Source: Saccharopolyspora elongata (GTDB lineage Bacteria > Actinomycetota > Actinomycetes > Mycobacteriales > Pseudonocardiaceae). Taken from it: DNA of 64,000 nt. The notes beneath the pieces were generated by a model. It saw nothing but the letters and a program-made list of their open reading frames with translations. It ran no database searches and was not told the origin of the DNA. This document shows, in pieces, positions 1 to 60,640 of the stretch; position 1 is the first letter of the stretch; each line of letters begins with the position of its first letter. Location: NCBI RefSeq assembly GCF_004348985.1, contig NZ_SMKW01000018.1, positions 1 through 64,000 on the forward strand. The letters are read 5' to 3'. The position numbers and the translations under genes were made by a program.

Positions 1-1200
1 GGGCCGGGTTGTGTTGTGGGGCTTGCGGTTCCGCGGTCGGTTGAGATGGTCGTGGCGGTGTGGGCGGTGCTCAAGGCGGGTGCTGCGTATTTGCCGGTCG
101 ATCCGGGCTTTCCGGCCGAGCGGATCGGGTTCGTGTTGGCCGACGCCGACCCGGTGCTGGTGGTGACGACCGTCGAAGCCGAACACGCGATGCCACGGGG
201 CTTTCCGGTTCTCGTGTTGGACGATCCAGGAACCGCGGCCGCAGTGGCCGGCGCTTCGGGTGCGGATATCACTTGTGCGGATCCTGCTGCCGTGCAGCTC
301 GATGATGCGGCGTACGTGTTGTTCACGTCGGGTTCGTCGGGGCGTCCGAAGGGCGTGGTGGTCTCTCACCGGAATGTGTGCGGGTTCGTTGCGGCCGTCG
401 ATCCGTGGTCGGGGACCCGCTCCGGGGACAGATTGCTCGCGGTGACGACCTTGTCGTTCGACATCGCCGTGGTCGAGTTGCTGGCGCCGCTGCTCGCCGG
501 TGCGGCGGTGGTCGTGGCTCGTGGTGGTGAGGTCGGGGATCCGCGGGCGTTGGCGGCGTTGGTGGCCGACCACGCGGTGACGGTCATGCAGGCGACACCG
601 GCTCTGTGGCAGGCGCTGGTGTCCGAAGCGCCGGGGATGATTCACGGGCTGCGGGTGTTGACCGGCGGTGAGGCCCTGCCAGAGCAGCTGGCGGTCCGGC
701 TGCGCGGTTCGGCCGGTGAGGTCGTCAACCTCTACGGGCCGACGGAGGCCACGGTGTGGTCGACGGCGGCGGAGATCGATCGCGATGGCCGGGTGACCAT
801 CGGCCGCCCGTTGGGCAATACCCGCGTCTACGTCCTCGGCCCGAACCTGCGGCCGGTGCTTCCCGGAGTGACCGGTGAGTTGTTCATCGCCGGTTCCGGG
901 GTGGCTCGGGGCTATCTCGGGCGTCCCGGGTTGACGGCCGGGCGGTTCGTGGCTGATCCGTTCGGTCCTTCGGGTGGGCGGATGTACCGGACCGGGGATG
1001 TGGCGCGCTGGAACCGGGATGGGGAGTTGGAGTTCGTTGGCCGGGTGGATGATCAGGTCAAGGTTCGGGGTTTCCGGATCGAGTTGGGTGAGGTCGAGGC
1101 GGTGCTGGCTGCTCATCCGGCGGTGGCGCAGTGCGTGGTGGCCGCGCGGGAGGACCGGCCGGGCGAAAAGCGCCTGGTCGCCTACGTGGTGGCCGATGCC
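1..1200 (+). repeat. A-domain segment nearly identical to 23237-24436
   Basis: The first 1.2 kb aligns without indels (constant offset of 23236 bases) to the third A domain of the second NRPS. Long stretches are identical, such as the first 150 bases and about 970-1185. Divergence is concentrated around 230-300 and 400-720. Both A domains give the same DIVQLGLVWK code. Confidence 0.8.
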
Positions 1201-4200
1201 GGTGACCCGGCTGAATTGCGGGCGTACGCGGCTCGGCGGCTGCCCGACTACATGGTCCCGTCGGCTGTGGTGGTCCTCGACGGTTTCCCGTTGACGGCGA
1301 ACGGGAAGCTGGATCGGAAGGCATTGCCCGCTCCCGATTTCGGCTCCGGCGTGGTGAAGGTTCCGCCGCGGACCGAGCGCGAGATGTTGTTGTGCGGGTT
1401 GTTCGCCGAGGTGCTGGGCGTTGCGGAGGTGGGGGTAGAAGACAGCTTCTTCGACCTGGGCGGCCACTCGTTGTTGGCGACTCGATTGGCCGGCCGTGTC
1501 CGTGCCGAATGCGGTGTGGAGTTGTCCGTACGCGCGGTGTTCGAGGCACCGACAGCCGCACAGCTGGCCATCCGGATCGACACCGAGGCGGGGATGCATC
1601 ACCCGGTGGCGCTGCGCGCCGAACAGCGGCCGGAAAGGGTTCCGCTGTCCTTCTCCCAACGCCGCTTGTGGTTCGTGGGAGAGCTCGACGCGACCGGCTC
1701 GGCGTACCACATCCCCCTGGCGTGGCGGATCCCCGGTGAGGTCGACAACGTCGCCCTGCGAACGGCGGTGCGGGACGTTCTCACGCGCCACGAGGCGCTG
1801 CGGACGGTATTCCCGTTCGGCGAGGACAGCGTGCCCTGGCAACAGGTCCTGGACGCCGACACCGCGCTGGAACGAGCCTTCGGTACTGCCGAAGTGGAGA
1901 TCAGCTCCGACGACGTTGAGCGGGTGGTCGCGGAGCATTCTGCGCAGGCCTTCGACCTGGGGGTGGAGCCGCCGATCAGGGTGCGATCGTGGGAGATCGT
2001 CGGCGGTGGCCGTGTCCTGATGGTGGTCTTGCACCACATCGCCGGCGACGGTTGGTCGGTGGGACCGCTGGTGCGGGACTTGGCCGTCGCATACGCGGCA
2101 CGGTGCACCGGCGAGGCGCCAGGTTGGCGGGAATTGCCGGTTCAATACGCGGATTTCGCGTTGTGGCAGCGGAAAAACCTGGGCAGCGAGGACGACCCCG
2201 GCAGTGCGATTTCGCGCCAGCTGGACTTCTGGAAGCAGGCTCTGCGGGACCTTCCGGAGGAACTGGCGCTTCCGGCGGACAGGTCTCGGCCGACCGTGGC
2301 GTCGTATCGGGGCCGGACTCTTTCGGCCGTCGTCGAGCCGGGTGTGCACCGGAGATTGGTCGAGCTGGCCCGGGAGTGCCGGGCGAGCACCTTCATGGTG
2401 CTCCAGGCCGCGCTCGCCGCGTTGTTGGCGCGGTTGGGTGCGGGGACGGACATCCCGATCGGAAGTCCGATCGCTGGACGTGACGATGAGGCGTTGCACG
2501 ATCTTGTTGGTGCGTTCGTCAACACGCTGGTGTTGCGGACGGATACTTCGGGGGATCCGAGTTTCCGGGAGCTGCTGGCGAGGGTCAGGGAGACGAACCT
2601 GGCTGCATACGCCCATCAGGACTTGCCGTTCGAGCGGCTCGTGGAGGCGTTGAACCCGCAGCGGTCCCTGGCGCGGCACCCGCTGTTCCAGGTGGCTCTC
2701 GCGCTCAACAACGGACCCGTCGCCGCGCTCGACCTGCCCGGCGGGAACGCCGAGCCGATTGCCGTCCCCATCAGCACCGCCAAGTTCGACCTCGCCTTCA
2801 CCGCGGTCGAACTCCCGGCCTCGGGGGAGCACCCCGGCGGCCTGGAGGTGTCCGTGGAGTACAGCGTGGACCTCTTCGACGCGGACACCGCCGAGCAGCT
2901 CCTCCAACGATTGCTGCGGCTGCTGGATCGGGCGTCCGCCGATCCCGATCGGCCACTGCACGAGCTCGACGTCCTCGCAGCAGCCGAGCGCCACCGGCTC
3001 CTCCACGAGTGGAACGGCGGTCAGGCGGCACCCGGTGCCGTGGTCCCCGATCTCTTCGAAGCCCAGGTCGCACGTACTCCCGACGCGATCGCGGTCCTGT
3101 GGGACGGGACGGCGGTGACGTACGCCGAGCTGAACGCGCGGGCGAACCAGTTGGCGCGATGCCTGGTCGAGAAAGGGGCCGGGCCGGAGACCGCGGTGGG
3201 GCTCGCGATCCCCCGGTCCGTCGAGATGGTGGTGGCGCTGCTCGCCGTGCTGAAGGCGGGGGCTGCATACCTGCCGCTGGATCCGGCATATCCGGCCGAC
3301 CGGCTCGCGTTCATGGTGGCCGACTCCGCACCGGTGCTCCTGCTCGCCCGCAGCGACGTCGAGCAGCAGTTCGCGGCCGGCCGAATGGTCTTGGACGAAC
3401 CGGGTGTCGTCGAGGCGCTGGCCCGGTACGCCGGTACCGACCTGACCGACGCCGAGCGGAATGGTCCGCTGGATCCGGCGAACCCGGCCTACGTCATGTA
3501 CACCTCCGGCTCGACCGGAACCCCCAAGGGGGTCGTCGTCACGCACTCGGGGATGGCGGATTCCGTCGCGTGCGCGCACGCGGTCGTCGGCCCGGAACGA
3601 CTCGCCCGCGTGCTCGCCTCGACATCGCTGAGCTTCGACACCTCGGTGCTGGAGATCTTCCCGCCGCTGACCTCCGGCGGGGCGATCGAAGTGGTACCCG
3701 ATCTCCTCACCTTGGCGGAGCGCCCGCAGGTGCTGTCGGACGGCGGCCTCGTCAGCGCCGTGCCGTCGGTCCTGGCGAAGGTGATTCGCGGCCAGGAGCG
3801 GGCGGAGGGGGTGCACACGGTGATCTTGGGCGGCGAATCCTTCACCGCCCAGCTCGTCCGGGACATCCGCGCGGTCTTCCCGAACTGCCGGATCATGAAC
3901 TTCTACGGGCCGACCGAGGCCACGGTCTACTCTGCGGTCTGGTACTCCGACGGCGACGAGCCGCCGCAGGCGCCGATCGGGCCGCCGGTGCCGGGCACCA
4001 GGGCTTACGTGCTGGGCCCCGCCCTGGAGCTGGTGCCCGCCGGGGTGGTGGGCGAGCTGTACATCGCAGGTGCCGGGGTGGCGCGCGGGTACTCGGGGCG
4101 TGCCGGGTTGACGGCCGAGCGCTTCGTGGCCGATCCGTTCGGCGCAGCCGGCGGGCGGATGTACCGGACCGGCGACCGGGTGCGCTGGAACCGGAACGGG

Positions 4201-7200
4201 GAGCTGGAGTTCCTCGGTCGCGCCGACGACCAGGTCAAGGTCCGTGGTTTCCGCATCGAACTGGGCGAGATCGAGGCGGCGGTCGCTGCGCACCCGCGGG
4301 TCGCGCAGTGCGTAGTCGTGGCGAGGGAGGAGCAGGAGGGCGAGAAGCGCCTGATCGCCTATGTCGTCCCCGAGGCCGGCGGGTGCGATCCGGCGGAGGT
4401 GCGGGCTCAGGTGGCCCGCAGCCGACCGGATCACATGGTGCCTTCGGCGGTGGTCCTGCTGGAGAGCCTTCCGCTGACCGCCAACGGGAAGCTGGACCGG
4501 AAGGCGCTGCCCGCGCCGGACTTCGGCTCAAGGAAGGCGATCACGCCGCCGCGGACGCCGCGCGAGGAATTGCTGTGCGGGTTGTTCGCCGAGGTCCTGG
4601 ACGTGGACGAGGTGGGGATAGGCGACGGCTTCTTCGATCTGGGCGGTCATTCGTTGCTGGCGACCCGGTTGGTGAGTCGCATCCGCACCACGTGCGGCGT
4701 GGGGTTGTCGGTGCGTGCGGTGTTCGAGGCGCCGACGGTGGCGGAGCTGGCCGCGCGGTTGGACGGCGCTGACGAGTCGGTGCGCCCGGTGTTGGCGGGG
4801 ATGGTGCGGCCGGAGCGGGTGCCGTTGTCGTTCGCGCAGTACCGGTTGTGGTTCGTGGACAAGCTGGACGCGGTTGGTTCGGCGTACCACATTCCGCTTG
4901 CTTGGCGGTTGACCGGTGAGGTCGACGTTCCCGCGTTGCAGGCGGCGGTGTGGGACGTGGTCGATCGTCACGAAGTCCTGCGGACGGCGTTCCCAGACGT
5001 GGCGGGGGTGCCGTTCCAGCGGGTGGTCGGCGATGCCCGGGATGTTCTGGACGTTCCGGTGCTCGCGGTCTCCGCGGATGACGTCGAGGAGGTGTTGGCC
5101 GATCAGGTCGAGCGGGGTTTCGACCTGTCCTGCGAGGCACCGGTCCGGGCGCGAATCCTCGTGGTGGACGAGCGCGAGGTCGTGCTCTCGGTGGTGTTGC
5201 ACCACATCGCCGGCGACGGTTGGTCGGTAGGTCCCTTGCTGCGGGACCTGGCCGCGGCGTATGCCGCGCGGTTCGCTGGTGAAGCGCCGGGTTGGCGGGA
5301 ATTGCCGGTGCAGTACGCGGATTTCGCGGTGTGGCAGCGGCAAGTCCTGGGCAGCGAAGAAGATCCGGACAGCGTGATCTCCCGCCAGCTGGAGTTCTGG
5401 AAGGAAGCCCTGCAGGGTCTTCCGGAAGAAAACGCCCTTCCCACCGACCAGCCGCGTCCGGCGACCGCTTCGTACCGGGGGCGGACCCATTCGGCCGCCG
5501 TCGCCCCCGAGGCGCATCGGAGGATGGTCGAACTGGCCCAGGCGTCTCAGGTGAGCACCTTCATGGTGGTGCAGGCTGCGTTGGCGATGTTGTTGACGCG
5601 GTTGGGTGCGGGTACGGACATCCCGATCGGAAGCCCGATCGCCGGTCGTACGGAGCAGGCGACCGAGGATCTGGTGGGGTTCTTCGTCAACACGCTTGTG
5701 TTGCGGACCGACACTTCCGGTGATCCGAGCTTCCGGGAACTGCTCGCGCGGGTCCGTGAGACGAACCTGGCCGCTTACGCCCACCAGGACTTGCCCTTCG
5801 AGCGGCTCGTCGAAGCACTCAACCCGCAGCGATCCCTCGCCCGGCACCCGCTGTTCCAGGTCCTGCTCACGGCCGACAACGCGCCGGCCGGGGCGCTCCA
5901 ACTGCCCGGCGCCCACGTGGAGCAGGTGACGGCCGCGGCCCGGACCGCCAAGTTCGACCTCGCCTTCACCGCACTCGAGCACGGTGGGACGGACGGCGGG
6001 CTCGACCTCTTCCTCGAATGCAGCGCGGACCTGTTCCGGCCGAACACCGGCGAGGCACTGCTCTGGCGGCTGGTTCGGGTGCTGGAAGCAGTCGTGGCCG
6101 ACCCCGACGTCCGGGTCGGGGACGTCGAGGTCCTGTCCGGGGCGGAGCGGCGCCTGCTGCTCGAAGCGCGGCGGGAAGCCGATGTCCCGGTCGCCACGCT
6201 GCCGGAGTTGTTCGAGGCCCGGGTGGCGGAGTCGCCGGACGCCGTGGCGGTGGCGTGCGGCGACGAGTCGGTGACCTACGCGGAGCTGAACTCCCGCGCG
6301 AACCGGCTCGCGCGGTGCTTGGCGGATCGCGGGGTGGGGCCGGAAAGCGTTGTGGGATTGGCGTTTCCGCGAACGCCCGCGATGATCACGGCGATGCTGG
6401 CCGTGCTCAAAGCCGGCGCCGCCTACTTGCCCATCGATCCGGATCAGCCCGCCGACCGGATCGCGTTCATGCTCGCCGACGCCGAGCCCGTGCTGGTGCT
6501 GACGACCACCGAGGTCGAACAGGCCCTGCCACCCGGAACGCCCCGTCTGGTCGTCGACGATCCACGCACGGCCGACGTGCTGGCCGGGATGCCGGATGCG
6601 GATCTCTCCGATGCCGATCGCGCTGCCCCGCTGCGCGTGGGCAACGCGGCGTACCTCCTCTACACCTCGGGTTCGTCGGGACGGCCGAAGGGCGTGGTGG
6701 TCGATCACGCGAACGTTGCGAGGTTGTTGGCGGTCGCCGGCTCCCGAATCGATGCGGGACCCGGCGATGTGTGGACGTTGTTCCACTCGTACGCGTTCGA
6801 CTTCTCGGTGTGGGAGATATGGGGCGCGCTGGCCGGCGGCGGGCGGCTCGTGGTCGTGCCGTGGGAGGTGACGCGTTCCCCGGCGGATTTCGCGGAGCTG
6901 CTGGTCCGTGAGCAGGTGTCGGTGCTGGACCAGACCCCGTCGGCGTTCTACCAGTTGGTGCAGGCCCTGGAGGACGAGCCGTCCCGACGGGACGGTTGGC
7001 GGGTGCGCTGCGTGGTCTTGGGCGGCGAGGCCCTGGACCCGGCTCGCGTCCCGGTCTGGGAAACCGGCATGCCCGCGGTGGTGAACATGTACGGGATCAC
7101 CGAGACCACCGTGCACGTCACCCACGCGGAGATCGACGCCGAGGATCGCCACGGCCGCAGCGTGATCGGCCGGCCGCTGGCGGACCTGCGGGTGTACGTG

Positions 7201-10200
7201 CTGGATGCGAACCTGCGACCGGTCGCGCCGGGCGTGGTGGGTGAGCTGTACGTCGCCGGTGCGGGGGTGGCGCGGGGCTATTCGGGGCGCCCCGGCTTGA
7301 CGGGGCAGCGGTTCGTGGCCGATTCGTTCGGCCCTGCCGGGAGCCGGATGTACCGGAGCGGCGACTTGGCGCGCTGGAACAGCGACGGCGAGCTGGAGTA
7401 CGCGGGGCGTGCCGACGACCAGGTCAAGGTGCGCGGTTTCCGGATCGAACTCGGCGAGGTCGAAACCGTCCTGACCGGCCACCCCGACGTCGCCCAGGTC
7501 GCCGCGGTCGCCCGAGAGGACCAGCCCGGCGAGAAGCGGCTCGTCGCCTACGTCGTCCCCGGCTCCGGTGGGTGCGATCCTGCCGACGTGCGGGCTCACG
7601 CGACCCGTCGCCTGCCGGACTACATGGTGCCCTCGGCGGTCGTGTTGCTCGATGCGATTCCGTTGACCACCAACGGAAAGCTCGACCGCAGTGCGCTGCC
7701 CGCGCCGGCGGTCGAAGCCGTCCGCGGGCGACGTCCGGGCAACGAGCGCGAGGAACGCCTGTGCGCGGCGTACGCCGAGGTGCTGGGCGTCGCCGAGGTG
7801 GGAGCGGACGACGACTTCTTCCGGCTCGGCGGCGACAGCATCATGACGATCCAGCTGGTGGCGAAGGCTCGTCGCGCGGGGGTTCGGATCAGCCCGAAGC
7901 AGGTCTTCGAGCAGAAGACCCCGGCGGCCCTGGCCGTCGTCGCCGAGGTCTCGGACGAGCCCGGCGCGATGGTCGGCGGTCCGGAGGCCGGACCGGTCGC
8001 GTTGACGCCGATCCTGCACTGGCTGCGCGATCGCGGCGGCCCGGTGGACCAGTACCACCAGAGCATGGTGGTGCAGGTGCCCGCGGCGGTCGGCGAAGCC
8101 GAATTGGCCAGGGCCCTGCAGGCCGTCATCGACCACCACGATGCGCTTCGGCTGAGCCTCGACGACTGGAACCTGCGGGTGCTCCCGCCCGGGACCGTTC
8201 GGGCCTCCTCGCGGCTGCGGCGCGTCGTGCTGGACGGCCCCGACTTGGACGAGGTCGTGGGCGAGCACCTCGACGACGCGGTGCGCCGCCTGAACCCCCG
8301 CACCGGCGAGCTGCTTTCCGCGACCTGGCTGGATGCGGGGAACCACTGCCCCGGCCGGCTCCTGCTCGTGGTCCACCACGTGGCCGTTGACGGGGTGTCC
8401 TGGCGGATCCTGCTGCCCGACCTGCAGGACGCGTGGTCCCAGGTCGCGGCGGGGGAAGACCAGGTGGTCCTCGAACCCGTCGGCACATCTCTGCGCGGCT
8501 GGGCCGACCACCTGGTCGAGCAGTCCCGCTCCCCGGAGCGGCTCGCCGAGCTGCCCGGCTGGCAGCTGGTGTCCGGTGTCGAGGAGCCCATGCTCGGAAA
8601 CCGGCCGCTGGATCCGGCCATCGACACCTCGGCGACGCTGCGCGCGATCGAAGTCGTCGTCTCCGCCGACGACGTGCTGCCGCTGCTGACGACCGTTCCC
8701 GCCGCGTTCCGCGGCAATGTCGACGACATCCTGCTCACCGCATTGGCCTTGGCCGTGCGGCACCGGCGTGGCGGCGGCGCCGTGCTGGTGGACGTGGAGA
8801 CGCACGGCAGGCAGGAGGCGGCCGGGATCGATCTGTCCCGCACCGTCGGGTGGTTCACCTGCATCGCCCCGGTCGTCCTCGATCCCGGCGAGGTGGACCG
8901 GGAACAGGTGCTCAACGGCGGCCCGGGTGCGGCGCGGGCCGTCAAGCGGATCAAGGAACAGCTGCGCGCCATGCCAGATCGCGGGCTCGGCTACGGGCTG
9001 CTGCGGTACCTCAACCCCGATGCCCGGCTCGCCGGCGCGAAGGCGCAGATCGCGTTCAACTACCTCGGCCGCTTCACCGCACCGGCCGAGGCCGCGGATT
9101 GGGCACCGGCGCCAGGGGCGGGCCTGGGAGCCGGGAGCGATCCGGATCTGCCCGCGGCCCACAGCCTCACCATCGACGCCGTGACGGAGGACGCCCCAGG
9201 CGGACCGAGGCTCGTGGCGACCTGGTCGTGGCCGGAAGGCCTGCTCGCGGAGTCAGAAGTGAGGGCCTTGGCGGCGGACTGGGTGGAGACGCTCCGGGCG
9301 TTCGTCCGCCACCCCGGCGGTGGCGGCAGCCCGTCGGACTTCCCGCTGGTTCCGCTGAGCCAGGACGACGTGGACCGCATCGAGCAGGCCGGCCCGGCGG
9401 TCGAGGACGTTCTCCCGCTGACCCCGCTGCAAGAGGGGTTGCTGTTCCACGCGTGGTTCGACGAGCTGGGGCCGGACGTGTACTTGGTCCAGCTGTGCGT
9501 GGAGCTGGCCGGTTCCTGGGACCTGCAGCGACTGCGCAACGCCGCGCAGCGGCTCTTGGATCGGCACGGGAGCCTGCGCGCCGGGTTCGACCGGCGCGGC
9601 CGGGAGCCGGTGCAGGTCGTCGCCCGGCAGGTGTCCCTGCCTTGGCGCGAGGTCGATCTGACGGGCGCGGACGATGTCGAGCAGGCGTACCGGGACCTGC
9701 TCGACCGCGACCGGCGGGAGCGGTTCGACCTGGGGCGTCCGCCGCTCCTGCGCTGCACCGCCGTGAAGGTCGGGGACGGTCGCCATCGTCTGGTGATGAC
9801 GCACCACCACGTGCTGCTGGACGGCTGGTCGCTCCCGATCGTGCTGCGGGAGCTGCTCGCCCTGTACTACTCCGAGGACGAACTTCCGCCGGCTCCGGTG
9901 TGGCGGGACTACTTGGCGTGGTTGTCCGATCAGGACGGTGCGGGGGCTGTTCGGGCGTGGGCCGAGGCCCTTGCGGGGGTGGAACAGCCGACGTTGGTGG
10001 CTCCGGGCGCGGCTCGGGGCGGAGTGGTGCCGGGCCGTGTGGTCGCGGGGGTGTCGGGCGAGCTATTGGGTGGTCTGCGGGCTCTGGCCGGCGGCCGTGG
10101 TGTGACGTTGTCGTCGGTGGTTCAGGCTGGTTGGGGGGTGTTGCTCGGTCGTCTGGTCGGTAGCGGGGATGTCGTTTTCGGTTCTGTGGTGGCGGTCCGC

Positions 10201-16200: not shown

Positions 16201-16392
16201 GACGTTCTGCTCTTCACCGCCGCGCGGGAGGCGAACGGACGCGCGGCGGCGCTCGACGTCTGGCGTCCCCACGCGACCGGGGAGATCCGCACCCACCAGA
16301 TCGACTGCAGGCACGCGGACATGATGCGACCGGAGTCCGCCGATCAGATCGCCCGCATTTTGATGGAGATACAGGAGGCAAGCGATGAGTAG
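1..16392 (+). CDS. NRPS (5'-partial): A-PCP, C-A-PCP, C-A-PCP-E, C-A-PCP, C-A-PCP-TE
   Basis: C-terminal part of a multimodular peptide synthetase; the frame is open at base 1 inside an A domain, so the start and at least one C domain lie outside the window. Domains by base position: A (1-1330), PCP (LGGHS near 1456), C (1635-3000, HHIAGDG), A (3040-4510), PCP, C (4815-6160), A (6200-7700), PCP (LGGDS), epimerase (8000-9300, HHVAVDG), D-type C (9400-10740, HHHVLLDG), A (10750-12240), PCP, C (12555-13900), A (13930-15400), PCP, TE (15700-16380; nucleophile Ser in GWSFGG, Asp in VLDAYP, His in CRHADM). Hand-read ten-residue codes in order: DIVQLGLVWK (Gly-like), DTLSIGFVYK (unassigned), DFWDVGMVHK (Thr-like with Asn to Asp), DIVQLGLVWK, DLLQLCAVWK (unassigned). 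The TE makes this the last protein of the line. The stop overlaps the MbtH gene by 8 bp. The product identity is unknown. Confidence 0.95.
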
Positions 16393-41217: not shown

Positions 41218-41227
41218 GGAGAAGGCC

Positions 41228-42536: not shown

Positions 42537-42560
42537 GTGATCCCGATTTCGTTGTGCAGC

Positions 42561-48404: not shown

Positions 48405-48443
48405 GCTCGTGGATGCCCCGGCGGTCGGATAGGTGGAACTGAC

Positions 48444-51400: not shown

Positions 51401-53858
51401 CACCGCGCCACAGCTCGACGGGACTTGGCTTCTCGTCGTTCCGGCCGGACTCGACGACGGCTGGAGGGCCGCATCGGCCCAGGCCCTCAGCGTGCACGGC
51501 GCGACGGTGCGCGCGGTGGAGTTGCCCGCCGACGCGGACCACGGCGTCGCGTTGGAGCGGTTGCGCGCGGCGATCGACGAACCACCGGTGGGCATACTCT
51601 CGCTGCTGGGGCTCGCATCCGGACCACACCCGGCGCTGCCCACCGGCCTGGTCGCCTCGATCGGCCTCGTGAGCGCGTTGGGTGAACTCGACGTCCAGGC
51701 GCCGCTGTGGTGCGCGACCAGCGGAGCCGTATCGACTTCGCCGACCGACGCGCCGCCCGATCCGGCGCAGGCCGAGCTGTGGGGTTTCGGCCGCGCAGTC
51801 GCGCAGGAACACCCCGTACGTTGGGGCGGGCTGATCGACCTTCCCGAAGCAGCGGACGAGTTCGCGATGCGGCGCCTGGCAGGCGTCCTCGCGGGACGGA
51901 CCGAAGACCAGGTCGCGGTGCGCGCATCGGGCGTGTTCGGCTGCCGCCTCGTTCGCGCCCCGCTGGCCGACGCCCAGCCGAAGCGCACCTGGCAGCCGCG
52001 CGGCACGGTGCTGGTCACCGGCGCGATCGGCAACGACATCGGAGAGGGCCTGGTGAAGTTGCTGGCCGAATCCGGCGTCGAGCACCTCGTGCTGCAACGC
52101 CGCCCCGGGGACCCGGAACCCGAGGGGCTGGCCACCGGAGACCGGGTGAGCATCGTCGAATGCGACACGAGCGACCGGGAGGCGCTCTCCCGGCTGCTGG
52201 CGGGGATCGACCGGGAGCTCACCGCAGTGCTCCACGTCGCGCCCCCGAACGCCGGAGCGGAGCAGTCCTGTACGGGCCTGGCCTACGACCTGGCGGCCGC
52301 CACCAACCTCGACGAACTGCTCGCGGACCGGGAACTGGATGCTTTCGTGCTGCTGTCCTCGGCCGGTGCGGTCTGGGGCAGCGCGGGGCAGGCCCGAACC
52401 GGGGCGGTCGGAGCGTTCTTCGACGGGCTGGCCCGGCGACGCCGCGCACGCGGAGCGGTCGCGACCGCGGTGGCGCTGGACCGCGGACCCGACCTTCCCG
52501 CAGAGCTGGTGGTCGACGCGCTTCGCCAGGCGGTGGAGCACGAGGAGACGTCGCTGATCGTGTCGCCGGTCGACTGGACGCGGTTCTTCCCCGACTTCAC
52601 CGCGTCCCGCCCGAGTCCGCTGCTCGCGGACCTACCGGACGTGCGGCGGCTGGGCCGGGGCGACGAGCCAGCGGACGCGTCGTCGCTCGTGGACGAGGTG
52701 TCCGGACTTCCGGAGGAGCAGCAGGAAGAAGCGCTCCTGGGCCTGGTCCGCGGCCAGATCGCCGCCGTCCTCAACTACACCGAGGCCGACGAAGTGGATC
52801 CGGCGCAGCGCTTCACCGAGCTGGGCCTGGATTCGCTGACCTCGGTCCAGTTGCGGAAGCGGCTCTCGGCGGCCACCGGCCTCAAACTGCCCACCAGCCT
52901 GGCCTTCGAACACCCCACACCGGCCGAGCTCGCCCGGTACCTGCGCACGGCGCTGACCGGCTCCCGCGAAAGCGGTCCGGCCGACATGATGGTCGAGCTC
53001 TACCGGCAGGCCTGCGAGAACGGCACGGCCATGGAGGCGATGCCGATGCTGGAGGCGGCCGCGAACCTGCGCCCCGGCGCCAGGAACCCGGAGGAGCTGC
53101 TGAACCGGCCCACCCCGCTACGCCTGGCGCGGGGACCGGAGCGGCCCGCGCTGATATGCCTGACCCCGTTCGTCACGCCGGCGGGCGCGCACCAGTTCGT
53201 GCGCCTCGCCGCCCCGTTCCGCGGCAAGCGGGACGTCTGGGTGCTGCCCCACCCCGGTTTCGGCCGTGGCGAACAGCTTCCCGAGAACATGGCGACGCTG
53301 GTCCGGCACCACGCGACGACAGTGCTGGAGTGCGCGGGCGACGAGCCGTTCGTGCTGCTCGGCTACTCCTCGGGCGGCTGGGTCGCGCAGGAGGTGGCGG
53401 CACACCTGGAGAGCATCTGCTCGCCGCCGCAGCGCCTGGTGCTGGTGGACGCCTACAGCCCCAACCTCCAGTACGCGCACCGGGTCTTCGACGAACTGAT
53501 GGCGGCGAACTCGCGGCTCGTGCGGACGCTGAACGTCGGCAGCGAAGAACTCACAGCCATGAGCCGGTACCTGCAGCTGTTCGAGAAGTGGGAGGCGCGG
53601 CCGGCCGCGGTTCGGACCCTGTTGCTGCGGGCCCGGGAGCAGGTGTTCCTCGACGCGACGGGCGGCGAGAGCCCGGCACCTCCGGACGGTGTCGACGAGA
53701 TCGTCGTCGTGCCCGGTGATCACGCCACCATGCTGCACGACCACGCCACCACGACCGCCGCCGCGCTGGAGACCTGGCTGGCCGATGACCTCGGGACAGC
53801 TGCAACGGCGTCCGGCGACCCATCGGTGCAGCCGCCGATGCGAGGAGGATCGTCATGA
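48444..53858 (+). CDS. type I PKS: KS-AT-inactive KR-ACP-TE
   Basis: An 1804-residue terminal module. The N-terminal coiled coil ([20 protein letters not shown]) is a typical docking helix that fits the C-terminus of the preceding PKS. KS starts near residue 34 (Cys206), AT near 563 (Ser654 in GHSQGE; G755-A756-G757-H758 at the specificity motif). The KR region (about 1187-1390) is degenerate: the TGGTGxLG loop reads TGAIGNDIG, the catalytic Lys is Asp1282, Tyr is Thr1319 and Asn is Gly1323, so the beta-keto group should be kept. ACP has Ser1464; TE nucleophile is Ser1642 in GYSSGG with His in PGDHATM. AGGTGG precedes the GTG start. The stop overlaps the P450 ATG by 4 bp. The TE should release or lactonise a short polyketide. 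Confidence 0.93.
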
Positions 53859-54994
53859 GGGACATCCCGGTTCGCCAGATGGTCATGTCGTCGGGGTTCC
53901 GGCCGTGGCTGATCACCGGCCACGCGGAGGTGCGCGCGGCGCTGGCCGACCAGCGGTTCGCGAAGGACTCGCACCGGGTCGCCGAAATGCTGGACCGGCA
54001 CTCGCTGGCCGGCACCGACAGCCTGTTCGGGCAGTCGCTCCTGCACCACATGCTCAACACCGATCCGCCGGAGCACGGCAGGCTGCGTGGGCTGGTCAAC
54101 AAGGCGTTCACCCCGCGCGCGGTCGAGCGCCTGCGGCCGCGGATCGAGGAGATCTGCGACGAGCTGCTGGACGCCTTGGGCGGGCGGCAGCACGTCGACC
54201 TGCTGGCGGTCTTCGCGGTTCCGCTGCCGATCAAGGTGATCTGCGAGCTCCTGGGTGTTCCACAGGAGGACCGGGAGGAGTTCCGGTCCTGGTCCAACGC
54301 GCTCGTCTCGGCGCTGCCGCGGGAAGTCGTGACGGAGGCGTCCAACGCGATGGCGGACTACCTGCACGGCTTGATCAAGGCAAAGGAACAGGACCCGGGC
54401 GAGGACATGCTCTCCGCGCTGGTCCACGCCCGGGACGGCGGTGATCGGCTGACCGCGGACGAGCTGGTCTCGATGGCGTGCCTGCTGCTGGCGGCCGGCC
54501 ACGAAACCACGGTGAACCTGATCGGCAACGGCGTGCTCGCGCTGCTGACCCACCCGGACCAGCTCGCGTCGCTGCGGGACGACCCGACCCGGTTGCCCGG
54601 CGCCATCGAGGAGTTCCTCCGCTACGACAGCCCCATCAACCAGGCGACGCTGCGGTTCACGACCGAACCCGTGGAGATCGCCGGGGTGCGCATCCCGGAG
54701 GGCGAGTTCGTGATGCTCAACATCGACTCCGCCAACCACGACGCGCGGCGCTACGCGGACCCGGACGTCCTGGACATCGGCCGGGACGAGGGCGGCCACC
54801 TCGCCTTCGGGCATGGCATCCACTACTGCCTCGGCGCGCCGCTGGCCCGGCTGGAGGCGGAGATCGCGTTCACCAAGCTGCTGGGCAGGTACGGCCGGAT
54901 CGACCTCGCGGTACCGGCCGAGCAGCTGGAGTGGCGGTTCAGCGTCGTGATGCGCGGACTCGAGCGACTCCCAGTCCGGCTCAGCCGGACGTAG
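53855..54994 (+). CDS. cytochrome P450 (bacterial class I, CYP107-like)
   Basis: A 379-residue soluble P450. Seen: I-helix oxygen-binding AGHETT, ExxR in EEFLRYDSP, and the haem loop [10 protein letters not shown] with the Cys ligand. The ATG overlaps the PKS stop (ATGA) and has GAGGAGG before it, so production is coupled to the PKS and a polyketide is the likely substrate. The protein begins about 25-30 residues later than usual for the family: it opens at the strand before [15 protein letters not shown], lacking the first helix. Redox partners are not encoded in the window. Confidence 0.92.
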
Positions 54995-55049: not shown

Positions 55050-55718
55050 ATGGCCGATCAAACCGGGTTCTCCCCGGAACTGCTCTCCTACGTCCGCGAG
55101 GTTTCGCTGCGGGAGGACGAGATCCTGCGCGAACTGCGCGACGAGACGGTGGCCTATCCGATGGGGAAGGTCATGCAGGTCATGCCCGAGGAAGGGCAGC
55201 TGCTCGCGTTCCTGGTCGGGCTGATCGGGGCCCGTTCCGTGTTGGAGGTCGGCACCTTCACCGGCTACAGCACGCTGTGCATGGCCCGGGCACTTCCCGC
55301 CGACGGGCGCCTGGTGACCTGCGACATCACCGACAGGTGGCCGGCGATCGGCGCCCCGTACTGGAAGCGCGCCGGTGTCGCCGACCGGATCGAGGTCCGC
55401 GTCGGTGATGCGCGGACGACGCTCGCCGGACTCATCGCCGAGGGCGGCGGGAACCGGACGGACCTGGTGTTCATCGACGCCGACAAGGCGAACTACCCGA
55501 GCTACTACGAGGACGCCCTCGCCCTGGTGCGTCCAGGCGGGCTGATCGTGCTGGACAACACGGTGTTCTTCGGCAGGGTCGTCGATCCGGCGGCCCAGGA
55601 TCCGGACACGGCCGCGCTGCGCGAGCTCAACTCGCGCATCCGCGCCGACGACCGGGTCGACCTCGCGATGCTGACCATGGCGGACGGCATTTCCCTAGTC
55701 CGGAAGAAGGTGTCCTGA
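55050..55718 (+). CDS. fkbG: FkbG-type O-methyltransferase (methoxymalonyl-ACP pathway)
   Basis: A 222-residue class I SAM-dependent O-methyltransferase of the caffeoyl-CoA/catechol type. Motif I reads [25 protein letters not shown] and [11 protein letters not shown] are the metal- and substrate-site segments. It is the expected O-methylating member of the FkbG-H-I-J-K set, converting hydroxymalonyl-ACP to methoxymalonyl-ACP. GGGAGG lies 11 bases before the ATG. It sits 55 bases after the P450 and 121 bases before the dehydrogenase. Taken alone it could methylate another hydroxyl of the product; the neighbouring four genes make the extender-unit role likely. Confidence 0.88.
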
Positions 55719-55839
55719 TGCCCAGGCCCACCTCCGGCGGGCAGGAACGACTTGAGACGACAACCAGCCTCCCGTCCATCCGGCCGTCCGAACAGGACGG
55801 TCGGCGGCGGGTGGCCTCCACACTTCGATAGGAGATGCG

Positions 55840-56706
55840 GTGGAATTCGGTCCGGGAGAACACCGGCTCACCGTCCTGGGGGCGGGGGTGATGGGATCGA
55901 ACATCACGACCCTGGCCATCGGGTACGGGCTGCCCGTGCACCTGGTAGACGTGGACCGGCCGACGCTGGATCAGGCGCGGGCGCGGATCGCCCGGCAGCT
56001 GCGGCACGCCCACCTGCTGGGCGCGCTGCCCGCCGACCAACCCGCCGGCGAACTGGTCACCAGCACGTCCGTCGCGGGCGCGGAAGGGGCGACCGCCGTC
56101 CTGGAAGCGGTCACCGAACTTCCCGACGTGAAGCGGAAGGTGCTGGCCGAGGTCGCGGCGGTGGTCCCGCCCGGAACACCCCTGGTGTCCAACACCTCGG
56201 GCATCCCCATAGACGAACTCGCCGAGGAGCTGCCGTGCCCCGAGCAGCTCGTCGGGACGCACTTCATGAACCCGACGTACCTGATCAAGATGGTGGAACT
56301 CGTCCGCGGCCCGCGCACCTCCGACGCGGCGGTCGCGGCGGTCGAGTCGCTGCTGGGCGCGCTCGACCGGACCCCGGTCGTCGTGCGGGACGATCCCGGG
56401 TTCGTCACCAGCCGGTTGCTGCACCCGATGATCAACCAGGCGGCGCGGATCGTGGAGCGCGGCACCGCCACGGTGGACGCGGTCGACACCTTGATGCAGG
56501 GCTGTCTCGGCCACCCGACCGGCCCGCTGCGGACCGCGGACCTGATCGGCTTGGACAACCTCGTGGATTCCCTCGCGGCGCTGTACGAGCGGACCGGCGA
56601 GCAGAGCTGCCGACCGTGCGACCTGCTGCTGGAGAAGGTGGCCAGCGGAGACCTGGGGCGCAAGACCGGCCAGGGCTTCTACGACTACGGAGAGGTGCTC
56701 TCATGA
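55840..56706 (+). CDS. fkbK: FkbK-type 3-hydroxyacyl-CoA dehydrogenase
   Basis: A 288-residue NAD-dependent dehydrogenase of the 3-hydroxyacyl-CoA dehydrogenase family. The N-terminal Rossmann loop is GAGVMGSNI; the family signature DDPGFVTSRLLHPMINQAARIVERG and a C-terminal domain ending GRKTGQGFYDYGE follow. In methoxymalonyl-ACP clusters this enzyme oxidises glyceryl-ACP at the hydroxymethyl carbon. GTG start with AGGAG five bases before it. The stop overlaps the ACP gene (ATGA). Confidence 0.9.
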   Translation: MEFGPGEHRLTVLGAGVMGSNITTLAIGYGLPVHLVDVDRPTLDQARARIARQLRHAHLLGALPADQPAGELVTSTSVAGAEGATAVLEAVTELPDVKRKVLAEVAAVVPPGTPLVSNTSGIPIDELAEELPCPEQLVGTHFMNPTYLIKMVELVRGPRTSDAAVAAVESLLGALDRTPVVVRDDPGFVTSRLLHPMINQAARIVERGTATVDAVDTLMQGCLGHPTGPLRTADLIGLDNLVDSLAALYERTGEQSCRPCDLLLEKVASGDLGRKTGQGFYDYGEVLS

Positions 56707-56990
56707 CAACGGATCAATCGGTCGAGCAGGGTTCCCGCGCGGCGATCGAGCGCGAGCTGCTGTCGTTCCTGGAACAGCGGCTGAGGACGTCGGTGGCACC
56801 CGACCGGGACCTGTTCGCGGAGGGGCTGATCACGTCGCTGTTCGCGATGGAGCTGGTGGTCCAGCTGGAGCAGACCTTCGACGTGTCCATCGTCGGACCG
56901 GACCTGAAGATGGACAGCTTCCGCTCCGTCAACGCCATGGCGGACCTCGTCCACCGGCTCCAACGGGCCGCGCCCACCGATGGCGCCTGA
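56703..56990 (+). CDS. fkbJ: FkbJ-type discrete acyl carrier protein
   Basis: A 95-residue carrier protein. The phosphopantetheine Ser is in GLITSLFAMELV; the residue before the Ser is Thr instead of the common Asp, which is usual for this ACP family. It would carry the glyceryl, hydroxymalonyl and methoxymalonyl groups and deliver the extender unit to a PKS AT. The ATG overlaps the dehydrogenase stop by 4 bp, and its own end overlaps the acyl-CoA dehydrogenase start by 11 bp. Confidence 0.9.
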   Translation: MTTDQSVEQGSRAAIERELLSFLEQRLRTSVAPDRDLFAEGLITSLFAMELVVQLEQTFDVSIVGPDLKMDSFRSVNAMADLVHRLQRAAPTDGA

Positions 56991-58092
56991 GCGGCTCGCC
57001 GACGAACGCGCTCTGGTCGCGGCGCTCGTCGGCGACCAAGCCGATTCCTGGGACGTGGCGGGACTCCTGCCGGGAGAGGTGCTGCGCGAACTCGGCGACC
57101 GGGGCCTGCTGTGCCCCCAGGTCCCGACGGAGCACGGCGGCCTCGGCCTCGACAGCCTCGCCTGCGGGGAGTTCACCGCCCACGCGGGCAGCCTCTGCAG
57201 CTCGCTGCGCAGCGTGATGACCTCGCAGGGCATGGCGGCGTGGACCATCCAGCGACTCGGCGACGCCGACCAGCGCAGCACCTACCTCGCGCGCCTGACC
57301 GGCGGGGAGCTGGCTGCGGTCGGGTTCAGCGAACCGGAGGCGGGCAGCGACCTGTCTGCGATCGGCACCGAAATCCGCCAGGACGGCGACTCCGTCGTCG
57401 TGAGCGGGCAGAAGGTGTGGATGACCGCCGCGCACTACGCGGACCTGCTGGTGGTCTTCGGCCGCCACGGGGATGGCGCTGCCGCGGTCGTCGTGCCCGC
57501 CTCGGCACCCGGCGTGCACGTGGAGCGGATCGCGGAGCCGCTGGGTTGCCGCGCGGCAGGGCACGCAAACGTCCGCTTCGATTCCGTGCGGCTGCCGAGG
57601 AACAGCGTCCTCGGCGGCACCGGCCAGTCCCTCGCGCTGCTGGTCACGACGGCCCTCGCCTACGGCCGCATGTCGGTGGCCTGGGGCTGCGTCGGCATCC
57701 TGCGGGCTTGTCTGGCCGCGGCGAGCGGGCACGCCGCGTCGCGACGGCAGTTCGGCAAACCGCTGGCGGAGCACCAGCTGGTCGCCCGGCACCTCGCCGA
57801 GCTGCTGGTGGCCGAGCAGGTCGCGACGAGGGCGTGCGAACACGCGAGTCGCTGCTGGGATTCCGGTTCTCCGGACGCGGTCGTGTCCACAGTGCTCGCC
57901 AAGCACGTGAGCTCCGGCCAGGCCGTTGCGGGCGCCGCGTCGGCGGTGCAGGTCCTGGCCTCGGCGGGCGCGCGCGACGGGCACGTCGTGGCCCGCGCCT
58001 ACCGCGACGCGAAGCTGATGGAGGTCATCGAAGGCAGCAGCGAGATCTGCCAGCTCATCTTGGCGCAGCACGCGCTGACCGCAGCACGATGA
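56980..58092 (+). CDS. fkbI: FkbI-type acyl-CoA/acyl-ACP dehydrogenase
   Basis: A 370-residue flavoprotein of the acyl-CoA dehydrogenase family. Seen: GFSEPEAGSDLSAIGT (FAD and substrate binding), SGQKVWMTAAHYAD, the ASRRQFGKPLAEHQLV helix, and EVIEGSSEICQLILAQ near the C-terminus. In methoxymalonyl-ACP pathways it works with the FkbK enzyme to oxidise the three-carbon unit on the ACP. It overlaps the genes on both sides (11 bp with the ACP; 4 bp if the next gene uses its first ATG), so the set is one translational unit. Confidence 0.9.
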   Translation: MAPERLADERALVAALVGDQADSWDVAGLLPGEVLRELGDRGLLCPQVPTEHGGLGLDSLACGEFTAHAGSLCSSLRSVMTSQGMAAWTIQRLGDADQRSTYLARLTGGELAAVGFSEPEAGSDLSAIGTEIRQDGDSVVVSGQKVWMTAAHYADLLVVFGRHGDGAAAVVVPASAPGVHVERIAEPLGCRAAGHANVRFDSVRLPRNSVLGGTGQSLALLVTTALAYGRMSVAWGCVGILRACLAAASGHAASRRQFGKPLAEHQLVARHLAELLVAEQVATRACEHASRCWDSGSPDAVVSTVLAKHVSSGQAVAGAASAVQVLASAGARDGHVVARAYRDAKLMEVIEGSSEICQLILAQHALTAAR

Positions 58093-58109
58093 ACGTTTCG
58101 GGAGTACCG

Positions 58110-59189
58110 ATGGACGACAAGCAGACGCTGGTGAAATGCCTGGTCTGGGACCTGGACGAAACCCTGTGGCGGGGCACCCTGGTCGAGGACGGAAACGTGC
58201 GCTTGGCCGACGGGATCACCGCCGTCATCGAGGAGCTCGACTCCCGCGGCGTCCTGCAGGCGGTGGCCAGCAAGAACGATCACGACCTGGCGTGGACGCG
58301 GCTGGTGGAGCTGGGCGTGGCCGACTACTTCGTGCTTCCCCAGATCGGTTGGGGGCGCAAGTCGGATTCGGTTCGCCGCATCGCTGAGCGATTGAACTTC
58401 GCGCCCGGCACGATCGCCTTCATCGACGACCAGCCGGCCGAACGCGCGGAGGTCGCCTTCCACCTCCCCGAGGTCCGCTGCTACCCGGCCGACCAGGCGC
58501 TGGCCCTGCCGGGGCTGCCCGAGTTCAGCCCGCGGGCGGTGACGGTCGATTCCCGGCGGCGCAGGCAGCTGTACCAGGCGAACTTCCAGCGGGAGTCCGA
58601 ACGGGAGTCCTTCGCCGGGCCCGACGAGGAGTTCCTGCGCACGCTGGGCCTCGAACTGCGCGTCGGCCGGGCGGACGACGAGGAGCTGTCGCGGGTCGAA
58701 GAGCTGACGCTGCGCACCAGCCAGATGAACGCCACCGGGGTGCACTACCCGGACGCCGTGCTGCGCGAGCTCTGCGCCGACCCGGCCCACGAGGTCCTGG
58801 TGGCCACGCTCACCGACCGCTTCGGCCCGCACGGCGCCATCGGCGTGCTGCTGCTGGAAACCCGCCCCGACCACTGGCACCTCAAGCTGCTGGCCACCTC
58901 GTGCCGGGTGGTCTCCTTCGGGGTGGGCACGGTTGTCCTGAACTGGTTGGTGGACCAGGCATTCCGGGCCGGCGTGCACCTCGTCGCCGACTTCCGGGCC
59001 ACCGACCGGAACCGGATGATGGACATCGCCTACCGCTTCGCGGGCTTCACCGACGAGCGCTGCGAATGCAGCGCCGAACGGCCGGCGGAAGCCGGGGTCC
59101 AGCGGCTGCACCTGGTTCCGGAACCGCGAGCCTTGCCCGACACCATGCGCCTCGACGCCCCGGCCATCGGCCGCCCCCGCGTCCCGTAG
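58110..59189 (+). CDS. fkbH: FkbH-like HAD-superfamily enzyme (glyceryl-ACP formation)
   Basis: A 359-residue FkbH-type protein that loads a glyceryl unit from 1,3-bisphosphoglycerate onto the discrete ACP and removes phosphate, the first step to methoxymalonyl-ACP. The HAD nucleophile motif is DLDETLWRGTL (residues 14-24), followed by ASKND and IDDQPAERAEV. The C-terminal acyltransferase-like half includes SQMNATGVHY and ADFRATDRNRMM. Two starts are possible: ATG 58089, overlapping the previous stop, or ATG 58110 with GGGAG five bases before it; I prefer the latter. A long perfect inverted repeat follows the stop. Confidence 0.9.
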   Translation: MDDKQTLVKCLVWDLDETLWRGTLVEDGNVRLADGITAVIEELDSRGVLQAVASKNDHDLAWTRLVELGVADYFVLPQIGWGRKSDSVRRIAERLNFAPGTIAFIDDQPAERAEVAFHLPEVRCYPADQALALPGLPEFSPRAVTVDSRRRRQLYQANFQRESERESFAGPDEEFLRTLGLELRVGRADDEELSRVEELTLRTSQMNATGVHYPDAVLRELCADPAHEVLVATLTDRFGPHGAIGVLLLETRPDHWHLKLLATSCRVVSFGVGTVVLNWLVDQAFRAGVHLVADFRATDRNRMMDIAYRFAGFTDERCECSAERPAEAGVQRLHLVPEPRALPDTMRLDAPAIGRPRVP

Positions 59190-59196
59190 CGAAGTG

Positions 59197-59341: not shown

Positions 59342-60640
59342 ATGTCCGGTCAGCAGTCCCGGGCCGACCAGAGCACGTTCGCCGAGCTCGGGCTCCGGGC
59401 GAGGCTGTTCGCCCAAGGGGCGCTGGCCTACCTGTTCGCCAAGGGCGGTGATTCCTTCGCCCGCCTGCTGCACTCCCCGTGGCGCGACGACCCGTACCCG
59501 ATCTACGCGGCGATGCGGGCGCGGGGACCGCTGATCCGCAGCAAGCTCGGGCTGCTGATCTGCACCACCCACGAACTCTGCGAGGAAGTGCTGCGGGACC
59601 GGCGATTCGGCGTGCTCCGCAGCGACGGGTCCTACGGCGACCCCACCGCGGCCGCCGTCGACCTCCAGCTCTCGCTGCTCGAACTCGACCCGCCGGACCA
59701 CACCCGGATCCGGCGCCTGGCCGCGCCGGAGCTGCGGCCGCGCCGCATGGAGAAGTACCGCCAGCGGATCGAGGACATCGCCAACGAACTGCTGGACGAG
59801 GCGATCGCGCGCGGCAGCTTCGACCTGGTCCGCGACTACGCCAGTCTGCTGCCGATCCGGGTGATCTGCGACCTGCTCGGGCTGTCCCAAGTGGACGCCG
59901 ACCGGCTGGGGCACCACGGCCTGGTGGTGTCCGGCTCGTTGGACGGGGTCCGTTCGACCAAGCAGCTCCGGCAGATGCGGGAATCCCTGAACGAGCTGGA
60001 CGCGATGTTCGCCAGGCTCATCGAGCAGCGCCGCGCGGACCCTGGCGACGACGTCGTGAGCAACCTGGTGACCGCGCTCGACGATGACAAGATCACCAGC
60101 ACGGAGCTGGTGCAGCTGTGCAACCTGCTGCTGGTCGCCGGTTTCGAGACGACCGTCAGCATGGTCGGCAACGGCGCGAACGCGCTGCTGAACCACCCGG
60201 AGCAGTGGGACCTCCTGCGCGCCGACCCGAGCCTGGCACCGGCCGTGGTGGAGGAGGCGCTGCGCTGGGACCCGCCGGTGCAGATGACCGGCCGGATCGC
60301 GCACGAGCCGCTCGAGCTCGCCGGCCGCCGGCTGCGCAAGGACACGCCGGTGCTGGTGCTGCTGGCCTCGGCCGGCCGGGACCCGGCGAAGCACGAGGAT
60401 CCCGACCGCTTCGACATCACCCGGGAGGTCCAGGGCGAGCACCTGGCCTTCTCCTCGGGCAGCCACTACTGCCTCGGCGCCCCGCTGGCGCGGATCGAGG
60501 GGGAGGTCGCGTTCCGCTGCCTGGCCACCCGGGTGCCCGATCTGCGCCGCGCCGGACCCGCGGTGCGCCGCCCGACGTCGGTCGTCCGCGGCCTGGCGTC
60601 CTTCCCGGCGTTCCCGGGCAAGACCGCTCAGCGCGCCTGA
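59342..60640 (+). CDS. cytochrome P450 (second)
   Basis: A 432-residue class I bacterial P450. Seen: I-helix AGFETT, ExxR in EEALRWDPP, the PERF-like DPDRFDITR segment, and the haem loop FSSGSHYCLG. An extra N-terminal stretch of about 45 residues precedes the usual DPYPIYAAMRARGPL start. GGAGG at 59330-59334 lies seven bases before the ATG. It is separated from the methoxymalonyl genes by the inverted repeat, so it may have its own promoter. It is the last plus-strand gene that looks biosynthetic; the substrate is unknown. Confidence 0.9.
   Translation: MSGQQSRADQSTFAELGLRARLFAQGALAYLFAKGGDSFARLLHSPWRDDPYPIYAAMRARGPLIRSKLGLLICTTHELCEEVLRDRRFGVLRSDGSYGDPTAAAVDLQLSLLELDPPDHTRIRRLAAPELRPRRMEKYRQRIEDIANELLDEAIARGSFDLVRDYASLLPIRVICDLLGLSQVDADRLGHHGLVVSGSLDGVRSTKQLRQMRESLNELDAMFARLIEQRRADPGDDVVSNLVTALDDDKITSTELVQLCNLLLVAGFETTVSMVGNGANALLNHPEQWDLLRADPSLAPAVVEEALRWDPPVQMTGRIAHEPLELAGRRLRKDTPVLVLLASAGRDPAKHEDPDRFDITREVQGEHLAFSSGSHYCLGAPLARIEGEVAFRCLATRVPDLRRAGPAVRRPTSVVRGLASFPAFPGKTAQRA

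What the first reader, a model, noticed from the sequence alone, without database searches (positions are those of the whole stretch)
1..60640. Large peptide synthetase and two-module PKS, each with its own thioesterase, in one locus
The NRPS line ends in a TE (GWSFGG) and the PKS line ends in another (GYSSGG), with a shared type II thioesterase, two P450s, CCR and a methoxymalonyl-ACP set. Two cis release domains mean two released chains: joined later, acting as a pair, or made by two abutting clusters. I know no described product that fits an 11-or-more-module Gly/Thr-containing N-methyl peptide plus a short methoxylated polyketide.
Basis: partly seen in the sequence, partly recalled or inferred. 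Interest (0 to 1): 0.75.

Follow-up and report, generated by a model that had tools for sequence, protein, structure and literature searches.

The report
Three-engine peptide and polyketide gene cluster

Summary
In detail: NRPSs with a TE, and a two-module type I PKS with its own TE, TEII, CCR, two P450s and a methoxymalonyl-ACP set. Base 1 is a contig end. An exact 127-bp overlap joins contig C184 and completes NRPS1 in frame. C184 adds a polyene-type (highly reducing) type II PKS, an acyl-CoA ligase, and an A domain interrupted by a luciferase-like monooxygenase, with MT, PCP and thioester reductase. The peptide line then reads as 11 modules, most likely nrps2 -> nrps3 -> nrps1-TE. All ten condensation domains fall in two clades that I read as LCL and DCL; I recognised no starter C, so the type II chain has no visible peptide acceptor. 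PKS1 has no loading domain, only an ACP-like domain without its serine. Best reading: the type II chain primes the PKS pair, a second line beside the peptide (0.4). Main rival: two abutting clusters (0.35). Three relatives carry type II + NRPS without the PKS block, and no relative of the whole PKS block was found (nearest partial match 54%). No product could be assigned. New variant of a known kind.

The parts
1..16392 (+). NRPS1, 5' part on contig C184 (99713-101372). Complete: C(DCL type)-A-PCP | C-A-PCP | C-A-PCP-E | C(DCL type)-A-PCP | C-A-PCP-TE; 5 modules, 5974 aa when joined. A codes read by hand: Gly, DTLSIGFVY (unassigned), Thr, Gly, DLAQLCAVW (unassigned)
15661..16389 (+). TE domain of NRPS1 (GWSFGG)
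16385..16606 (+). MbtH-like protein
16715..29470 (+). NRPS2: A-PCP | C-A-PCP | C-A-PCP | C(DCL type)-A-PCP-E; no N-terminal C; codes read Val, Thr, Gly, DVFSVAIVY (unassigned); likely starts the peptide
29467..38406 (+). NRPS3: C(DCL type)-A-MT-PCP | C(DCL type)-A-PCP-E with an acidic tail; no TE; codes DVFSVAIVY (with MT) and DFFSVGIVY (unassigned)
38500..39393 (-). DUF5937 protein with ArsR-like HTH, divergent, between the two blocks
40432..41217 (+). Type II thioesterase (stand-alone)
41207..42493 (+). Crotonyl-CoA carboxylase/reductase
   Evidence: TIGR01751, 577 bits, cut-off 379
42560..42833 (.). About 270-bp dispersed repeat between CCR and PKS1
43092..48404 (+). PKS1: ACP-like domain without serine - KS - AT(FTAH) - KR - ACP - C-terminal docking tail
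43191..43439 (+). Degenerate N-terminal ACP-like domain of PKS1 (KR where the two other ACPs have DS)
48444..53858 (+). PKS2: N docking coil - KS - AT(GAGH) - KR lacking the usual NADPH motif and catalytic Tyr - ACP - TE(GYSSGG)
53855..54994 (+). Cytochrome P450, overlapping the stop of PKS2
55050..59189 (+). Methoxymalonyl-ACP set: O-MT 55050-55718, FkbK-like 55840-56706, ACP 56703-56990, FkbI-like 56980-58092, FkbH 58110-59189
59342..60640 (+). Second P450; match to P450-derived GT activators under the cut-off (301 vs 343 bits), heme Cys loop present

Best explanation
One cluster of about 82 kb (C184:79.8 kb to window 60.6 kb) with two assembly lines. Peptide line: nrps2 (Val-Thr-Gly-D-X) -> nrps3 (N-Me-X - D-Y) -> nrps1 (Gly-Z-D-Thr-Gly-W), released by the nrps1 TE, probably as a ring or lactone. 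Acyl line: the type II PKS builds a polyene-type acyl chain on its own ACP. Because no condensation domain of starter type was recognised, that chain is passed in trans to PKS1, whose loading ACP is dead. PKS1 adds methoxymalonate and reduces; PKS2 adds an alkylmalonate (ethyl or longer, from the CCR) and leaves the ketone; the PKS2 TE releases an acid or lactone. P450s tailor, and the two products are joined later or act together. Shown here: the genes, the join, the domain make-up and the missing parts. Inferred: the order of NRPS subunits (fairly strong), residues and extender units (moderate), the type II to type I hand-off and a shared pathway (weak). Stated confidence is for the whole.
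For: Join: window 1-127 equals C184:101246-101372, the exact contig end; the shared repeat is only 132 bp; the joined frame is open for 5974 aa. Subunit order: nrps2 starts with A and ends in E, nrps3 ends in E; nrps1 C1 is 74% identical to the C that follows the internal E of nrps1; nrps3 tail net charge -10, nrps1 head +1. Type II PKS: KS 82027 has best PDB hit 6kxd_A (562 bits; next 9s5h_B 385, FabF types 266 or less) and CLF-like 88694 has 6kxd_B (262 bits, next 75); ACPs, DH, KR and a DsbA/FrnE-like isomerase beside them. No starter C recognised: the ten C domains fall in two clades, while the C of two relatives' single modules beside the cassette forms a third. PKS1 has an ACP-like N-terminus lacking the serine and Pfam shows no loading domain. 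The PKS2 AT motif GAGH equals that of a 60% identical AT in G571 beside a 75% identical CCR. No gene annotated between C184:79.8 kb and window 60.6 kb looks like housekeeping.
Against: Relatives of the type II + NRPS part lack the PKS block (4 of 4 inspected), and the 80 methoxymalonyl loci lack a close polyene KS. A divergent regulator, 1.04 kb without called genes and a dispersed repeat lie at the block border. Two of the five DCL-type C domains follow modules without an E domain (n2 C4 after Gly, n3 C2 after the MT module), so that clade alone does not prove a D-donor. No known starter C was in the trees, and warns of a long-branch effect for the third clade. The other two KS-like proteins match the PDB less tellingly: 83294 best 6kxd_A with 166 bits, 84436 best a FabF-type with 61. 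An acyl-CoA ligase and an A-LLM-A-MT / PCP-R unit also lack assigned substrates, so the type II chain may go there. No docking evidence links a type II ACP to PKS1. In relatives the module beside the type II cassette is an NRPS with a TE, not a PKS.
Confidence: 0.4

Rival explanations
1. Two abutting, independent clusters: a type II PKS/NRPS cluster ending at 38.4 kb and a small PKS cluster from 40.4 to 60.6 kb whose KS is primed by a primary-metabolism acyl group; two unrelated products.
For: Neither half was found with the other in the loci inspected. The border holds a divergent regulator and a 1.04-kb gap. The PKS block carries its own TEII, CCR and extender genes.
Against: No loading module or starter enzyme was found in the PKS block. 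The type II chain has no recognised starter C. The biosynthetic genes run the same way with no housekeeping-like gene between.
Confidence: 0.35
2. Gene-order collinear hybrid: nrps2 -> nrps3 -> pks1 -> pks2-TE gives a hexapeptide with two polyketide units, and nrps1-TE ends some other chain.
For: Gene order in the window; nrps3 has no TE; PKS1 lacks a loading domain.
Against: nrps3 ends in an E domain with a tail like that of nrps2, and nrps1 begins with a C of the DCL clade; the PKS1 head is an ACP relic, with no resemblance to the C-domain heads of nrps1 and nrps3.
Confidence: 0.08
3. Cinnamoyl-type peptide: the type II acyl chain is released, activated by the FadD-like ligase and put on the N-terminal Val or a Thr hydroxyl by an enzyme outside the NRPS; the PKS block supplies a second decoration.
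For: The cassette fits the CCNP mining criteria of KS, KR, DH, ACP and isomerase next to an NRPS (PMC6510318, section 6); a FadD-like gene follows the isomerase.
Against: No free-standing C domain among the C184 genes scanned at 79.8-101.4 kb and no recognised starter C.
Confidence: 0.12

Closest known systems
Cinnamoyl-containing nonribosomal peptide clusters (skyllamycin, epoxinnamide, kitacinnamycin, WS9326A)
   Same: Highly reducing type II PKS with several KS/CLF proteins (four KS-like here, EpcS/P and EpcR/Q in epoxinnamide), KR, DH, ACP and isomerase next to a multi-module NRPS; in epoxinnamide too the TE-bearing subunit EpcC is named before EpcD/EpcE (PMC9321520 passages; PMC6510318 passages and section 6).
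   Different: In epoxinnamide the first NRPS subunit EpcA begins with C; here nrps2 begins with A and no starter C was recognised, and a two-module type I PKS with methoxymalonyl genes and a reductase-ended A-LLM-MT unit are added.
Type II cassette + NRPS loci in unnamed same-family genomes G205, G236, G118 (cassette without detected NRPS: G280)
   Same: Cassette genes in the same order, KS 74-77% identical (G280 with extra genes inserted); G118 and G236 have an NRPS subunit beginning with A, DCL-first subunits and a terminal TE.
   Different: G205, G236 and G118 carry a single-module NRPS with its own TE beside the cassette (its C a third clade in the two placed in the tree); no AT-bearing type I PKS, CCR or methoxymalonyl gene was detected in the 55-60 kb read; TEII-like genes occur in G118 and G236.
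Last module of a modular PKS with CCR and two P450s in G571 (filipin-like layout by recall)
   Same: AT 60%, KR-like 50%, ACP-TE 50%, CCR 75% identical; AT motif GAGH; best of 394 class genomes with the PKS2 KR-ACP-TE query, 54% (2 candidates scored a genome).
   Different: There it ends a long PKS; here only two modules exist. Its P450s are 38% identical.
FkbG-K methoxymalonyl-ACP gene sets (FK506/FK520, ansamitocin by recall)
   Same: O-MT, 3-hydroxyacyl-CoA DH type, ACP, acyl-CoA DH type and FkbH in one run.
   Different: FkbH is at most 75% identical to any of the 80 best loci.

Membership tests
Cinnamoyl-containing nonribosomal peptide (CCNP) cluster | Polyene type II KS, KR, DH, ACP and isomerase clustered with NRPS genes | tested here: met
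   criteria from PMC6510318 section 6. Comparison was with PDB and Pfam, not with Sky17, Sky26 or Sky27 themselves; the isomerase matched only DsbA/FrnE-like proteins.
Cinnamoyl-containing nonribosomal peptide (CCNP) cluster | First NRPS module has a C domain that takes the type II acyl chain | tested here: not met
   nrps2 starts with A; the ten C domains fall in two clades read as LCL and DCL. No known starter C was available as a reference.
Cinnamoyl-containing nonribosomal peptide (CCNP) cluster | Desaturation step that gives the aromatic ring | tested here: inconclusive
   No desaturase-type gene among those scanned at C184:79.8-101 kb; an FAD aromatic-hydroxylase-type gene lies on the other strand at 76.5-78.0 kb; the enzyme may lie elsewhere.
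Piperazic acid-containing peptide | A-domain code DVFSVA-x-YA plus KtzI/KtzT genes | tested here: not met
   Two codes read DVFSVAIVY, the last pair VY not YA (published codes in passages). PF04299 finds two places in the genome, neither with an ornithine hydroxylase recognised among the translated neighbours (read by eye).
Methoxymalonyl-using type I PKS | FkbG-K genes and an AT selective for methoxymalonyl-ACP | tested here: inconclusive
   Genes present. PKS1 AT motif FTAH resembles FAAH and FPAH of one AT each in two methoxymalonyl loci, L105 and L114, but specificity is untested.
Streptogramin-like pair cluster | Two products acting together | not testable with these tools
   Needs metabolites.

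The most novel reading that the evidence does not exclude
A discrete, highly reducing type II (polyene) PKS directly primes a modular type I PKS. The type I protein keeps its old loading ACP only as a dead docking relic, and in this cluster the type I pair takes the place that a single-module NRPS with its own TE has in relatives.
Probability: 0.3. Interest if true: 0.75.

Novelty: new variant of a known kind. Interest (0 to 1): 0.5.

Why it matters
If the type II to type I hand-off is real, it would be a further way for assembly lines to exchange chains and a part for engineering. Even if not, the locus is an unassigned cluster with an 11-module peptide line, and three relatives show a TE-ended single module beside the type II cassette next to a TE-ended peptide line (that this module takes the type II chain is inference). 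Such a layout, seen in a single window, would be taken for two clusters.

Tried and rejected
Piperazic acid as residue X: rejected (codes end VY; PF04299 hits lack a recognised ornithine hydroxylase neighbour). Continuation of the large PKS on C168/C236 into PKS1: rejected, that PKS has its own TE on C236. C64, C218, C63, C236, C168 or C21 as neighbour: no exact overlap of 30-399 bases among the ends tested; C184 overlaps by 127 bases. P450-2 as a heme-less glycosyltransferase activator: rejected, the FSSGSHYCLG loop is present and the score is under the cut-off. A-LLM-MT relatives G250, G043, G243: same unit in a different NRPS setting, no cluster match in 80 kb each. GTDB-wide scan with the PKS1 N-terminus: 125 pattern matches, none a relative. 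Family search with PKS1 N-terminus+KS: 1 of 297 genomes, itself, at a strict cut (1e-120) with 7 scored candidates a genome. P450-1 in 22 genus genomes: best elsewhere 57%. nrps1 PCP-TE in 390 family genomes: 101 match at 1e-60, full-length ones elsewhere under 50% identity, shorter ones up to 57%. PKS2 KR-ACP-TE in 394 class genomes: 33 match at 1e-80, best elsewhere 54% (G571). Paper searches for A-domain codes such as DFFSVG gave three piperazic acid papers and three unrelated ones. The listings showed no paper whose title or abstract start describes this hand-off or this interrupted-A/LLM/reductase unit (165 matched, 12 listed; 48 matched, 15 listed; 4 listed); this is no claim that none exists.

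Full report
What is there. The window is contig C98:1-64000 of a 10.3-Mb draft genome in 277 contigs. A codon-based gene call and domain searches give nrps1 (1-16392, open to the left), MbtH, nrps2 (16715-29470), nrps3 (29467-38406), a divergent regulator, TEII, CCR, pks1 (43092-48404), pks2 (48444-53858), P450, five methoxymalonyl-ACP genes and a second P450 ending at 60640. To the right come GSDH, xylose-isomerase-like and DUF993 genes, so the right edge is probably near 60.7 kb.

The NRPS TE closes the first NRPS gene, not the NRPS block; nrps3 ends in an E domain with an acidic tail. Base 1 is a contig end. The first 127 bases equal the last 127 of contig C184. The same 127 bases recur inside nrps2 at 23237, where identity runs for 132 bases only, as expected for a k-mer-limited break. 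The joined nrps1 frame is open for 5974 aa.

What the join adds. The C184 genes at 79.8-101.4 kb run the same way as the window: two proteins with weak HTH matches, ACP, KS, KS, a KS-like protein, hydrolase, 4HBT-like protein, a DsrE-like protein (just under the cut-off) and two more small proteins, a CLF-like protein, ACP, FabA-like DH, FabG-like KR, a DsbA/FrnE-like isomerase, a FadD-like ligase, an A domain interrupted by a MupA-type monooxygenase (TIGR04020, 463 bits) and followed by an MT, then PCP-thioester reductase, then nrps1. KS 82027 matches 6kxd_A best (562 bits; next 9s5h_B 385, FabF types 266 or less) and CLF-like 88694 matches 6kxd_B (262, next 75); by recall these are the ishigamide Iga11/Iga12 pair. 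KS 83294 and KS-like 84436 are less telling (166 bits to 6kxd_A; 61 bits to a FabF type). I read this as a polyene-type type II PKS.

Peptide line. The ten C domains of the three NRPSs split into two clades of five that I read as LCL and DCL; nrps1 C1 is 74% identical to the C after the internal E, and its best PDB matches are McyB, TycB and SrfA-C. Two of the five DCL-type C domains follow modules without E, so the clade alone is not proof. With the E endings of nrps2 and nrps3 and the opposite charges of the nrps3 tail (-10) and nrps1 head (+1) the order nrps2 -> nrps3 -> nrps1 is the best supported: 11 residues. Codes were read by hand on an alignment and interpreted from recall: Val-Thr-Gly-D-X-(MT)X-D-Y-Gly-Z-D-Thr-Gly-W. 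X, Y, Z and W are unassigned. X shares six positions with published piperazic acid codes (passages of PMC9866976, PMC5031334, PMC3943440), but the last pair differs and no such pathway was recognised in the genome.

PKS line. PKS1 has an ACP-like N-terminus with KR where its own and the PKS2 ACP have DS (Pfam PP-binding 26 bits over half the model), active-looking KS and KR, and AT motif FTAH; PKS2 has AT motif GAGH and a KR without the usual NADPH motif and catalytic Tyr (read by eye). Of 82 AT places compared, motifs were YASH 31, HAFH 22, unparsed 17, FASH 4, VAGH 2, YAPH 2, and GAGH, FAAH, ARAH, FPAH one each; the two best matches of the PKS1 AT are among the unparsed. GAGH is shared with G571's CCR-linked last module. 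Neither motif proves the extender.

Do the blocks travel together? FkbH scan of the GTDB r220 collection (84,980 species): 290 of 317 candidate stretches encode relatives, the best 80 were kept, at most 75% identity; none shows an orthologous PKS pair (PKS1 AT up to 57%, PKS2 AT up to 53%, PKS2 KR-like up to 45%) or a close polyene KS within its flanks of up to 10 kb (best 38% over 241 aa, L096). The type II KS occurs at E<=1e-130 in 93 of 390 family genomes, the window's own included; the 20 other genus genomes listed have none. I inspected the four best: all four hold the cassette genes in order, three with NRPSs; none shows the PKS block in 55-60 kb. In G205 and G236 the C domain of a single-module NRPS with its own TE, beside the cassette, forms a third C clade (which warns of a long-branch effect; G118 has the module but its C was not placed). 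So a TE-ended module beside the cassette and a TE-ended peptide line recur in relatives; here no such C module is present while the PKS pair is. That the relatives' module takes the type II chain is inference.

Judgement. I favour one cluster with a type II chain priming PKS1 (0.4) over two abutting clusters (0.35). The link rests on two complementary gaps, not on a direct test. A collinear NRPS-to-PKS reading is unlikely (0.08). The locus fits CCNP mining criteria (PMC6510318 section 6) but not the starter-C feature, so I do not file it as a member.

Noticed in passing
window 42560-42833: A GC-rich repeat of about 270 bp with near-matching ends, folding at -131 kcal/mol over 285 bases (no shuffle control), present at 26 other places of the genome at 80-96% identity (40 of 619 candidates scored, so a lower bound); MITE-like, directly upstream of PKS1.
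   Followed up: partly
C184:87520-88650: Three small proteins, the first DsrE-like, inside the type II PKS cassette; the second and third found in the same order in G205, G236, G118 and G280, the first in G236 and G280. Role unknown.
   Followed up: partly
C184:94375-99479: A domain interrupted by a MupA-type luciferase-like monooxygenase, followed by MT and, on a second overlapping gene, PCP-thioester reductase; in G250, G043 and G243 the same unit (about 52-53% identical) follows other NRPS modules.
   Followed up: partly
window 44448-44522 and 49497-49571 (-): Rfam ASpks matches antisense to both KS domains; most likely reflect KS sequence conservation, not an RNA.
   Followed up: no
window 18329-18420 (+): ARAGORN tRNA-Ala call inside nrps2 coding sequence, probably false.
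   Followed up: no
C168:59.5-117.1 kb and C236 from 1: A separate large modular PKS (12 KS places on C168 and one on C236) with its own TE on C236; the two contigs appear to continue each other but no exact end overlap was found at the lengths tested.
   Followed up: partly
window 59342-60640: P450-2 scores close to, but under the cut-off of, the P450-derived glycosyltransferase activator family and keeps the heme Cys; no glycosyltransferase family appeared in the window genes scanned.
   Followed up: partly
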